Assembly: GCF_029633865.1 (NCBI RefSeq)
Contig: NC_079214.1
Span: forward strand, 19,780,119 to 19,844,118
DNA length: 64,000 nucleotides
From: Lampris incognitus
Lineage: Eukaryota > Chordata > Actinopteri > Lampriformes > Lampridae
Reading direction: 5' to 3'
The position numbers and the translations under genes were made by a program. Position 1 is the first letter of the stretch, and each line of letters starts with the position of its first letter. Of the stretch, positions 29,515 to 45,100 are shown in pieces. The notes below the pieces were generated by a model. It made no database searches. It saw only the letters and a program-made list of their open reading frames with translations, and had not been told where the DNA came from.

Positions 29515-30534
29515 ATGGAGCGTCATGCTGTTGGCAATTTGTCACCCTCGATTGCCCTCCAAGGTAAGAGGAAAAAAACAGCATAAAATATAACGATATT
29601 TTTATAAAGTATCTCGATCTTTCTTTGCGTTTGTACTGCGTTGTTGCCCGATATGTCAAGGCAGTGCAAGGCAGGTGTGTAAGAATACATAAATAAATAA
29701 ACAAACAAACAAAAACAATAGTTGACAGCTAAACGTCAAACGGTCATTTAAAACGTAATGTTTTTCGTTTTTCTTGTACAACGACATCCCAGTGACTGAA
29801 TCGTAGCCTACAAACATGTAAACGATAATTACACATTACATACCAGTGGACTGATGCCACTGCTTTCTGTGTCCTTTCAGAGGAGCATCAGTTTAAAGAA
29901 TGGATGACAGAGGTACGCGTGTATCAGCTATGGATTAATATATTGATCCAAAGGATAACTATGACCTGGATGAATGAGAACATTCACAGACATTAATGTA
30001 TTGATCATATCTGTAGTGCCCTTTTCTAAATATTTTAAGTTGATAGTTTTTTTTCTTTTCTTGCTGACTTTCTGATCTACAGCACGGCAAAGTTTACAGC
30101 TCAGCGGAGTACCACCGACGACTGCAGATATTCGTTGAGAACAAAAGGAGCATTGATGAACATAATGCTGGGAATCACTCCTACACACGTACGTACTTAA
30201 GTGACTTTGTTTTATAGTCGGCTGCTCATGTGCAAAGCTCCCCACATTTAGGCTCTAGGTTATGCCTTGTGAGTTTTATTTCTCTCCATGTTATATCACC
30301 TATATCATCTATATATATTTTGTGTATCTTTGATATACAAAATGCTCTCCACCTGCCACATTGATAGCTTAATATAATACCCGAAAGGTGGATTGCACAT
30401 TTATCTAAAACAAACCCCAGTGATTATTCTAATGAGGTCTTTTTGTTTTCAAACTTTTCCTAGAGGGGCTGAACCAGTTCTCAGACATGACATTTGAGGA
30501 ATTCAAGAGGTGCTACCTTATGACAGAGCCACAG
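29515..30534 (+). pseudogene. ctsh: Orphan ctsh exons 1-4 (copy A)
   Basis: Cathepsin H 5' exons without an adjoining catalytic part: 29515-29563, 29881-29912, 30083-30188 and 30464-30534, all with intact GT-AG borders and the same phases as copy B. Exon 1 has lost about 30 bases, so the usual start gives MERHAVGNLSPSIALQ, without a hydrophobic signal core. Exons 2-4 keep the prodomain ERFNIN spacing ([20 protein letters not shown]) and GLNQFSDMTF, and end in EPQ. An in-frame ATG at 29,356 would add a Phe-rich stretch encoded by a poly-T tract. It could be a dead duplicate, or an alternative 5' cassette spliced to exon 5 (44,442). The sequence alone does not decide. Confidence 0.85.
29934..30006. 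mobile_element. 43-bp Penelope-like end inserted with 15-bp target duplication
   Basis: In copy A ctsh intron 2, ATTAATATATTGATC (29,934-29,948) and ATTAATGTATTGATC (29,992-30,006) flank 43 bp containing ATGACCTGGATGAATGAGAA. Copy B has a single ATTAATGTATTGATC with no insert. The inserted text matches the Penelope-like end seen at 45,170-45,200 (minus) and 55,700-55,735. Confidence 0.85.
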
Positions 30535-30579
30535 GTATAGTACACCCTCATTTTGATAGAACCTTGGGTACAGTACGCT

Positions 30580-42100: not shown

Positions 42101-45100
42101 AGTGACTCATAGGCCAAATGAGAGGATCATATTCCCCATCTTGCATTCTCAGTGTATTTTAAGGATGTACTGCTCATCCTCTCTTTTTCATCTTGCGGTG
42201 GCAATTGAGAATGTACAATAATCAAGCATTCCTCCTTGATAACCATTTCTAAATACTCCGCTCAGTGCTCCACCCTACCAAATTAGTGGCTTTGAAGGCC
42301 CCTTCGGGATTAAAAGTTTATGACTTCGACAGGGCCCCAACGCATCTGTGTAATATCTGAATAAAAGAGCCTTGTTAGGGCACGTACTTGCATTCAGGGT
42401 TGCGTACAGTGATGCTTGAAAGTGTGTGAACCCTTTAGAATTTTTTATTTCTGCATAAATCTGAAAACATCATCAGGATTTCACACAAGTCCTAAAAGAA
42501 GATAATGAGAACACAATTAAACTAATGAGACAAAAATATAAAACTTGGTTATTTATTCATTGAGGAAAATGATCCAATATTACATATCTGTGAGTGGCAA
42601 AAGTATGTGAACCTTTGCTTTCAGTATCTGGTGTGACCCCCCCCCCTTGCTGCATGACCCACATTTTCTTGAGATTCAGTTCACAGACAGATGTCCTGAC
42701 ATTTTCCTTAAGAATTCGCTGGTATAATTCAGAATTAATTGTTCCATCAATGATGGCAAGCCATCCTGGCCCAGATGCAGTAAAACAGGCCCAAACCATG
42801 ATACTACTACCACCATGTTTCACAGATGGGATAAGGTTCTTATGCTGGAATGCAGTGTTTTCCTTTCTCCAAACATAACACCTCTCATCTAAACCAAAAA
42901 CTTCTATTTTTCCAATAGCCTTCTGGCTTGTCCACGTGATTTTTAGCAAACTGCCATGCACACCATTGTTGTTCAGTGTTCTCCTGATGGTGGACTCATG
43001 AACATTAGCCAATTTGAGAGAGACCTTTAGTTGCTTAGAAGTTACCCTGGGTTCCTTTGTGACCTGGCCGACTATAACACGCCTTGCTCTTGGAGTGATC
43101 TTTGATGGTTGACCACTCCTGGGGAGGGTAAAAATGGTCTTGAATTTCCTCCATTTGTACACAATCTGTCTGACTGTGGATTGGTGGAGTCCAAACTCTC
43201 TAGAGATGGTTTTGTAACCTTTTCCAGCCTGATGAGCAGCAGCAATACTTTTTCTGAGGTCCTCAGAAACCTCCTTTGTTCTTGCCATGATACACTTCCA
43301 CAAACATGTGTTGTGAAGATCAGACTTTGATCAATCCCTGTTCTTTAAATAAAACAGGGCGCCCACTCACACCTGATTTCATCCCATTGATTGAAAACAC
43401 CTGACTCTAATTTCACCTTCAAATTAACTGCTAATCCTAAAGGTTCACATACTTTTGTCACTCACAGATATGTAATATTGGATCATTTTCCTCAATAAAC
43501 AAATGAGACAAAAATATTATGCTTGGTCATTTGTTTAATTGGGTTCTCTTTGTCTTTTTTTAGGACTTGTGTGAAAATCTGATGATGTTTTAGGTCATAT
43601 TTATGCAGAAATATAGGAAATTCTAAAGGGTTCACAAACTTTCAAGCACCAAGCTAAGCCTCACCCCATTTTGCATGCTGCAGCCACGGGATATAAAAAC
43701 TAACCAATCAGTATTGATAAACTTGAATTTTTTGATTCCTTAAAAAAATTCTCAAGAGAGGCACACAACCTTTTTTTACTCGAATGCAGCTTAACCACCT
43801 TATGTGATATGCTACTTCAGCACACTTTAACAACAAATATTACTGGGACCACTACAGAAAATTGTAGATGAACATTTAATATCCAGGAATTCATATTATA
43901 GACACTACCACTGACTATCCCTGTAACAAATCTGGCACAGTTTCTAACATTGACCATACACAGTCCAGCCACATACTAGGTTTTGACCAAGTCTTGTTTG
44001 ATAAGTACTACTACCTATGGTAAGTATAGACTGGTCGTTGCTGCAAGTTGAACCAGAAAGTATCTCAGCAACGTGATTGACCATTGAAAATATTGAACAT
44101 TTTGGGTGATAACTTTTAACTTTCACTGTTGTTTTCACTTTCAAATATGGGGTTGTCCTTTAGACCTTGAGACAAATAAGGAGTTGTAGGATGTTACTAC
44201 TTTCTGTTATATACGCTGGTTGATCCAGTATATAGCCTATGTAGTCTTTTGAATTGATTATAAATGTAATTGTAAAATTTCATAGAAGCTGAGTGAATTC
44301 TGATTGCAGAATAACTGAAATGTGACATGTCTATGAACTTGGGGCCCGGAGAGAGAGAAGAAAATTCTAACAAAATATAATTTCATTTATTTTTCATGGG
44401 GATTAATTCACCTCTAATTATACTGTTTTGATATTTCATAGAACTGCTCAGCTACTAAAGGTAATCATGTGAGCAGAAATGGACTTTACCCAGAGTCTGT
44501 GGACTGGAGAAAGAGGGGCAACTTTGTGTCTCCTGTGAAGAACCAGGTATGGTATGTTAATAGAGCCTCCAAACCCCTGGTGCATGATCAGAGAGGTAGT
44601 AACCTATGACTAAATGTACAAAGACAACAGGCCGAACAGTGTTGAATCCATTTTGATGGTTCTGTATCCACCTGTAGTTCACCTCAATGGAAAAATGCAT
44701 AGGGGTGTAAAAACATTGCCTCTATGTCTTTGTATGTAATTGACTGGACATAACTGTCCAGAGATATTGTTATACTATTTTGCTTTAGGTTATGACACCA
44801 TTCTGGATTTCCTAAACTATTTAAATTAATTCTGTTCGAATTAGAAGTTGCAGTAAAAAAGTTAGAATTTGATACCCTTACCTAGTGTAGCATCATTTAA
44901 AAAGCAACATCACCCCCCACCCCTGTATCAGCTGTACTTTGCCCCTTTCTCGTCTTGCTCAGACAAGACGGGGAGTGGCTGGTTGAGATCAGACTTCCTC
45001 TCTGATTTGGGGGGTTGGTTACACGAATGTGCTTTTTCATGTATCTGTGATGTCTCTGGACTGGACAAAAGTACTTGGACATGCAAGCATTTGGGACTGT

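What the first reader, a model, noticed from the sequence alone, without database searches (positions are those of the whole stretch)
29515..44546. Two ctsh 5' cassettes that splice rules make mutually exclusive
Exons 4A and 4B both end in phase 0 and fit exon 5. Exon 2B needs one leftover base, so splicing 4A into 2B gives an early stop after eight codons. Only 1A-4A+5 or 1B-4B+5 make protein. Copy A keeps the mammal-like mini-chain (EPQ + NCSAT), GLNQFSDM and YHRRLQ. Copy B has [11 protein letters not shown] and YYQRLQ. The mini-chain is known to impose aminopeptidase activity. So the better-conserved prodomain sits in the copy that looks orphaned.
Basis: partly seen in the sequence, partly recalled or inferred. 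Interest (0 to 1): 0.8.

Follow-up and report, generated by a model that had tools for sequence, protein, structure and literature searches.

The report
Half-duplicated cathepsin H gene in fish
In this fish the first four exons of the cathepsin H gene were copied in tandem, and the outer copy, although its inhibitory domain looks better preserved, has lost the signal that sends the enzyme to the lysosome and is most likely a relic rather than a second switchable form.

Summary
The two cassettes are real. A segment from the last exon of the upstream gene (rasgrf1 by recall) to ctsh intron 4 was duplicated (22981-34244 with 35945-42266). ctsh exons 5-12 are single; genome searches showed no third copy among the candidates scored.

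Splice phase does not make the cassettes exclusive: of six cross-cassette junctions tested, 1A-2B, 2A-3B, 3A-4B and 4A-3B stay open. And exon 1A has a 30-base gap in the signal-peptide core, leaving no hydrophobic stretch, so A cannot make an ordinary lysosomal enzyme. B has the signal peptide, a CpG-rich promoter and exon 5 next in line, and is most likely the working cassette.

The puzzle survives. Polarised with human and a second ctsh on contig C9, B changed at 9 prodomain residues and A at 2 (4 unresolved; p 0.065). Fitted dN/dS is about 0.4 for A and 1.2-1.4 for B, equality not rejected (p 0.12). A may have coded until recently, or may still make a signal-less or prodomain-only product.

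The parts
22894..23025 (+). last coding exon of the upstream gene (rasgrf1 by recalled C-terminus and recalled synteny; no call named it); the detected homology begins inside it at about 22981
   Evidence: open frame ending [15 protein letters not shown]; homology start
22981..34244 (+). duplicated unit, copy A
   Evidence: BLAST self-comparison
35945..42266 (+). duplicated unit, copy B
25708..29290 (.). stretch of copy A without a BLAST counterpart in B, with a reverse-transcriptase frame (26048-28222, minus strand), where B has its distal promoter; weak colinear trace of promoter at 29007-29050
29881..29912 (+). exon 2A
30083..30188 (+). exon 3A (ERFNIN helix)
30464..30534 (+). exon 4A (GLNQFSDM, ends EPQ); read on, the frame gives one codon (V) and then a stop in the intron
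30580..31449 (+). insert in intron 4 of copy A without counterpart in B, with AATAAA at 30663 and 30739
38474..39180 (+). B promoter region, CpG-rich (observed/expected about 1.4); 38474-38822 lies between the BLAST matches to A
39044..39122 (+). exon 1B, with signal peptide
39459..39490 (+). exon 2B
39601..39706 (+). exon 3B
40000..40070 (+). exon 4B (GLNHFSDM, ends QPQ)
44442..44546 (+). exon 5 (NCSAT), shared
46058..51983 (+). exons 6-12, shared, single in the window; CGSCW, NHAV and NSWG present

Best explanation
A tandem partial duplication copied the tail of the upstream gene, the ctsh promoter and ctsh exons 1-4, but not exons 5-12. Cassette B, next to exon 5, with signal peptide and CpG-rich promoter, supplies the normal preprocathepsin H (anatomy shown, expression inferred). 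Cassette A is a relic: inserted sequence stands where its distal promoter was, its signal-peptide core is deleted, and a transcript from it would by default splice 4A to 2B and stop, or end at one of the AATAAA signals between the cassettes (inferred). Exons 2A-4A stay open because the decay is young or because A was still coding for part of its history. The faster change of the B prodomain is put down to relaxed or shifted selection, made easier by the second ctsh gene on contig C9 (inferred).
For: Duplication limits and exons 5-12 once only. No third copy among candidates scored (61 of 61 protein candidates; 40 of 825 DNA candidates). Signal peptide: best 12-residue hydropathy 0.80 in A against 2.77 in B and 2.14 in C9 (hydropathy only). 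Promoter: B has 38 and 40 CpG per 500 bases with observed/expected 1.39 and 1.36; A has 16-18 per 500 with 0.90-1.06 (29000-29999); in the aligned 5'UTR-to-intron-1 block 12 CpG of B are TpG/CpA in A against 4 the other way, 11 shared. B 38460-38840 has only a 25-nt inverted hit (E 0.62) in A 25500-29600. The 2A and 2B acceptors share their last 21 intron bases; AATAAA at 30663, 30739, 35874, 36269 and 38006 lie between 4A and 1B. C9 ctsh exons read open.
Against: The A prodomain changed less than B (2 against 9 of 15 differences, 4 open). Fitted dN/dS is 0.39-0.45 for A and 1.19-1.37 for B, the reverse of what a dead A predicts, though equality is not rejected (p 0.12). Under neutrality exons 2-4 and their splice dinucleotides stay intact in 4-5% of simulations at t 0.065-0.075, 8% at 0.05 and 13% at 0.03. 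A keeps a zone of CpG observed/expected near 1, against 0.24-0.53 at 24000-26249. A weak colinear trace of promoter remains in A.
Confidence: 0.7

Rival explanations
1. A is a live second promoter that makes a signal-less cathepsin H (1A-4A joined to exon 5, or hybrid forms such as 1A joined to 2B) acting outside the secretory path, for example in cytosol, nucleus or mitochondria.
For: Open frames for the pure and hybrid forms; constraint-like pattern in A; residual CpG-undepleted zone. Precedents: a cathepsin H form lacking part of the signal peptide, signal-less cathepsin B in mitochondria, a signal-less cathepsin L in the nucleus (PMC1087480, abstract and passages).
Against: 4A must pass 2B, whose acceptor matches that of 2A over 21 bases, and five AATAAA signals before 1B; distal promoter not found in A; no expression data.
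Confidence: 0.1
2. A is a stand-alone prodomain (I29) inhibitor gene: exons 1A-4A end just inside intron 4 and use a nearby poly(A) site, giving a 90-aa CTLA-2/crammer-like protein.
For: Frame ends ...EPQV then stop; the I29 domain scores 76.1 bits in A against 69.9 in B; AATAAA 129 and 205 nt after the donor, in an A-only insert; none within 250 nt after 4B. Would explain tolerance of signal-peptide loss and the slower change of the prodomain.
Against: The same in-frame stop follows 4B, so it is not a new feature. A[AT]TAAA within 250 nt of the donor is found after 4 of 15 ctsh donors (1A, 4A, 7, 10), so it is not rare. The A-only cysteine (residue 82) is one residue off crammer Cys72 when aligned on the shared EF. 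CTLA-2alpha itself has a signal sequence (PMC4089206, passage). No RNA data.
Confidence: 0.08
3. One reading: two working cassettes, kept apart by splice rules, both giving cathepsin H enzyme with different mini-chains.
For: 4A and 4B fit exon 5; 4A-2B and 4A-4B are frameshifted.
Against: No signal peptide in A; four of six cross-cassette junctions tested stay in frame.
Confidence: 0.03
4. Assembly artefact: two haplotypes or a false duplication laid end to end.
For: Contigs C21 and C498 carry papain-family hits with the same scores, so leftover haplotigs may exist in this assembly.
Against: A/B divergence is K80 0.07-0.35 by region, with copy-specific insertions; no further near copy among the candidates scored.
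Confidence: 0.04

Closest known systems
Cathepsin H (C1A papain family), human procathepsin H 6CZK
   Same: I29 prodomain, ERFNIN and GNFD positions, PQNCSAT mini-chain with its Cys, catalytic motifs
   Different: four 5' exons present twice; A copy lacks a signal peptide; B mini-chain begins Q, not E
Genes with tandem 5' cassettes and a shared 3' part: chelicerate sDscam (PMC4835542, abstract and passages); UGT1 and protocadherin clusters (PMC1885805, start of abstract in the search listing)
   Same: multi-exon 5' cassette repeated head to tail before single shared exons; cross-cassette and doubled-domain junctions reported in sDscam are the kind found open here
   Different: only two cassettes; one lacks signal peptide and distal promoter; no evidence that both are transcribed
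Signal-less cathepsin forms: cathepsin B delta51, truncated cathepsin H and L (PMC1087480, abstract and passages)
   Same: a 1A-4A+5 product would keep the enzyme but lack the ER signal
   Different: cathepsin B delta51 comes from splicing variants of one gene; here the loss is in the DNA of a duplicated cassette
I29 propeptide-like inhibitors: CTLA-2alpha, crammer, BCPI, salmon salarin (PMC4089206, two of five parts of the text and passages)
   Same: cassette A alone would encode such a domain
   Different: no proof of a separate transcript; the A-only cysteine is one residue off

Membership tests
Cathepsin H (B form) | signal peptide | tested here: met
   apolar run [14 protein letters not shown], (hydropathy only, no trained predictor)
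Cathepsin H (B form) | ERFNIN and GNFD-type prodomain motifs | tested here: met
   positions named kept in the alignment; I29 69.9 bits
Cathepsin H (B form) | mini-chain EPQNCSAT with its cysteine | tested here: inconclusive
   QPQNCSAT: first residue differs, cysteine kept
Cathepsin H (B form) | catalytic Cys, His, Asn | tested here: met
   CGSCW, NHAV, NSWG present; Peptidase_C1 260.4 bits
Cathepsin H (A form, 1A-4A+5) | signal peptide | tested here: not met
Cathepsin H (A form, 1A-4A+5) | prodomain motifs and EPQNCSAT mini-chain if joined to exon 5 | tested here: met
   I29 76.1 bits
Tandem 5'-cassette gene (sDscam/UGT1/Pcdh kind) | repeated 5' cassettes with shared 3' exons in compatible phase | tested here: met
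Tandem 5'-cassette gene (sDscam/UGT1/Pcdh kind) | each cassette has a working promoter | tested here: inconclusive
   B CpG-rich; A distal promoter not found but residual CpG zone
Tandem 5'-cassette gene (sDscam/UGT1/Pcdh kind) | transcripts from both cassettes joined to the shared exon | not testable with these tools
   no RNA data on hand
I29 propeptide-like inhibitor (CTLA-2/crammer kind) | I29 domain without a protease domain on its own transcript | not testable with these tools
   frame ends in intron 4, transcript unknown
I29 propeptide-like inhibitor (CTLA-2/crammer kind) | cysteine at the CTLA-2alpha C75 / crammer C72 position (needed in CTLA-2alpha, not in crammer nor present in BCPI) | tested here: not met
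   A Cys82 aligns with crammer R71, one residue off (crammer tail as printed in PMC4089206); the CTLA-2alpha letters were not seen

The most novel reading that the evidence does not exclude
Cassette A is not dead but has become a stand-alone, cytosolic I29 inhibitor carved out of a cathepsin H gene by partial duplication: loss of the signal peptide and a poly(A) signal brought by an insertion turned four 5' exons into a 90-aa prodomain protein, under selection to keep the ancestral prodomain, while the enzyme's own prodomain in cassette B drifted away. If so, an inhibitor and its protease would be nested in one locus and caught early in their separation.
Probability: 0.08. Interest if true: 0.72.

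Novelty: new member of a known kind. Interest (0 to 1): 0.34.

Why it matters
A half-duplicated protease gene with two 5' cassettes shows how tandem-cassette genes or prodomain-only inhibitors might begin, and warns that gene predictors may join the wrong prodomain to this enzyme. The mismatch between the better-preserved prodomain (A) and the only cassette with a signal peptide (B) is a small, testable puzzle; if A is expressed it would be a duplicated-cassette counterpart of the signal-less cathepsin forms already described. If A is silent, the case is an ordinary decaying partial duplicate.

Tried and rejected
Mutual exclusivity by phase: rejected, because 1A-2B, 2A-3B, 3A-4B and 4A-3B are open. 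An alternative signal peptide in A: another ATG in exon 1A gives MLLAICHPRLPSK but ends in phase 0, out of frame with exon 2A (read by eye). A match of the A-only cysteine to CTLA-2 C75 / crammer C72: first suggested by PDB search end coordinates, rejected as one residue off when anchored on the shared EF. Homology of 34245-35944 to the sequence after copy B: beyond the unit end only short hits with E 0.49 or worse. dN above dS as proof of positive selection: 17 nonsynonymous and 2 synonymous differences, Fisher p 0.38, dN above dS in 91% of bootstraps, not significant. Dating the inserted stretch at the A promoter failed: the search was sent five times and not answered. tRNA scan of 22000-45000: none. 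Pfam on a spliced fragment at 54 kb and a frame at 62 kb: no family. Papers: no paper on a duplicated ctsh 5' cassette was seen in the listings of the eight answered searches, which cover an open-access library only.

Full report
WHAT IS THERE. The window lies in an unnamed 1.48-Gb genome (G000:C5:19780119-19844118), a ray-finned fish by inference. A self-comparison shows one tandem duplication, 22981-34244 against 35945-42266, broken by copy-specific insertions. The detected homology begins inside the last coding exon of the upstream gene (frame ...[15 protein letters not shown], stop at about 23025), which I take for rasgrf1 from a recalled C-terminus and recalled synteny; no call named it. 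It ends in ctsh intron 4. Exons 5-12 (44442-51983) occur once, with GT-AG borders and one open frame. A DNA search of the whole genome with the A cassette (40 of 825 candidates scored) found A, B in two pieces, and 40 short matches to a repeat in intron 2A. A protein search (61 of 61 candidates scored) found prodomain exons of ctsh kind at A, at B and in a second, compact ctsh on contig C9. The C9 exons 1-5 were joined, and exons 6-12 were read by eye as open, with one apparent GC-AG intron. This is consistent with the CTSHa/CTSHb pair reported for black rockfish and ascribed there to genome duplication (PMC9409823, passages).

Exon phases, the eight-codon frameshift of 4A into 2B and the motif differences are as stated. 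But phase does not make the cassettes exclusive. Because A and B are duplicates, each exon keeps the phase of its twin. Of six cross-cassette junctions tested, 1A-2B, 2A-3B and 3A-4B each give an open 325-aa protein and 4A-3B gives 384 aa with a doubled prodomain; 4A-2B and 4A-4B are shut. Cross-cassette and doubled-domain junctions of this kind were found by RT-PCR in chelicerate sDscam genes, some of which have four-exon 5' cassettes (PMC4835542, passages). The acceptors of 2A and 2B share their last 21 intron bases, so a transcript from A has no visible reason to skip B.

Aligned from the shared ATGGAG, exon 1A has a 30-base gap against 1B, within the signal-peptide core. The A N-terminus, MESMERHAVGNLSPSIALQ, has a best 12-residue hydropathy of 0.80, against 2.77 for B and 2.14 for C9. 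No trained signal-peptide predictor was on hand. A 1A-4A product is therefore expected to stay outside the secretory path, where the mini-chain disulfide is not expected to form; in human cathepsin H, changing the mini-chain Cys80P to Ser abolished activity (PMC6059440, passages).

PROMOTERS. B has a CpG-rich start region (38500-39249: 38 and 40 CpG per 500 bases, observed/expected 1.39 and 1.36). A at 29000-29999 has 16-18 per 500 with 0.90-1.06, lower than B but above 0.24-0.53 at 24000-26249. In the aligned 5'UTR-to-intron-1 block 12 B CpGs are TpG or CpA in A, 4 the reverse, 11 are shared. B 38460-38840 has only a 25-nt inverted hit (E 0.62) in A 25500-29600. A has there a 3.6-kb stretch with a reverse-transcriptase frame (RVT_1) and only a weak colinear trace of promoter (alignment score 16; best of 300 shuffles 17). 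AATAAA signals at 30663, 30739, 35874, 36269 and 38006 lie between 4A and 1B; by position those at 36269 and 38006 are the copies of 23308 and 25235 in the tail of the upstream gene.

DIVERGENCE. A/B differ by K80 0.069-0.12 upstream, 0.35 in the promoter/5'UTR, 0.28 in intron 1, and 0.13-0.23 in introns 2-4. In exons 2-4, 19 of 209 bases differ: 17 nonsynonymous and 2 synonymous (dN 0.108, dS 0.050; Fisher p 0.38). With human alone as outgroup, 6 of 15 residue differences are changes in B, 0 in A, 9 open (p 0.031). With human plus C9, 9 are in B, 2 in A, 4 open (p 0.065). Of 34 residues shared by A, C9 and human, B changed 5; of 29 shared by B, C9 and human, A changed none. A codon model with neutral branch lengths set by me from the intron divergence (0.065 or 0.075, equal for A and B, kappa fixed at 2) gives dN/dS 0.39-0.45 for A and 1.19-1.37 for B. 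Equality is not rejected (p 0.12), A=1 has p 0.07-0.14, and B=1 has p 0.36-0.61. A neutral simulation started from the B exons (80% of indels taken as frame-shifting) leaves exons 2-4 and their splice dinucleotides intact in 4-5% of runs at those lengths, 8% at 0.05 and 13% at 0.03.

READING. The simplest account is a partial tandem duplication in which B serves the gene and A decays. A lost its signal peptide and, as far as the alignments show, its distal promoter. The slow change of the A prodomain does not fit well a copy that died at once: A may have coded until recently, or may still make a signal-less enzyme or a bare prodomain. Signal-less or signal-truncated cathepsins B, H and L have been described (PMC1087480, abstract and passages). 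A bare prodomain would be a CTLA-2/crammer-like I29 inhibitor: the A frame gives one codon and a stop inside intron 4, and two AATAAA signals in an A-only insert follow the donor at 129 and 205 nt. Against it, the same in-frame stop follows 4B, A[AT]TAAA lies within 250 nt of 4 of 15 ctsh donors, and the A-only cysteine sits one residue away from crammer Cys72. Fast change in the B prodomain may reflect relaxed selection given the second ctsh on C9; this is inference.

VERDICT. Observation partly confirmed; exclusivity by splice rules rejected; new member of a known kind (partial tandem duplicate with a decaying 5' cassette); interest modest. RNA junction counts would settle it.

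Noticed in passing
47539-48739: Inverted repeat with two 537-nt arms that are 100% complementary, 127 nt apart, in the intron before exon 10: a very young fold-back element or an assembly artefact.
   Followed up: no
29399-29810 with about 38930-39390: The four 100-base bins around exon 1 and intron 1 differ 21-31% between copies, while 34 of the other 42 bins differ 2-15% and 8 differ 17-23%; uneven divergence suggests past gene conversion or a local rate difference.
   Followed up: partly
24190-25707 with 37087-38473: This part of the copied tail of the upstream gene differs only about 7%, roughly half the lowest intron values, as if one copy (perhaps a used 3'UTR) were constrained.
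   Followed up: no
L024 (G000:C9:62312500-62320500, minus strand): Second, compact ctsh gene with signal peptide and EPQNCSAT mini-chain; the intron after exon 11 appears to begin GC (GGG|GCAAGT).
   Followed up: partly
42557-43303 (minus): Tc1-like transposase frame (Pfam HTH_SB, Sleeping Beauty type) in intron 4 upstream of exon 5.
   Followed up: no
G000:C21:25661927-25664177 and G000:C498: Papain-family exon hits with the same scores on a large contig and a small one: possibly a leftover haplotig.
   Followed up: no
38623-38701: Two CACATGA sites in the B-only promoter part, resembling recalled MITF/TFEB-type elements of lysosomal genes; the same word also occurs at 25085 and 37856.
   Followed up: no
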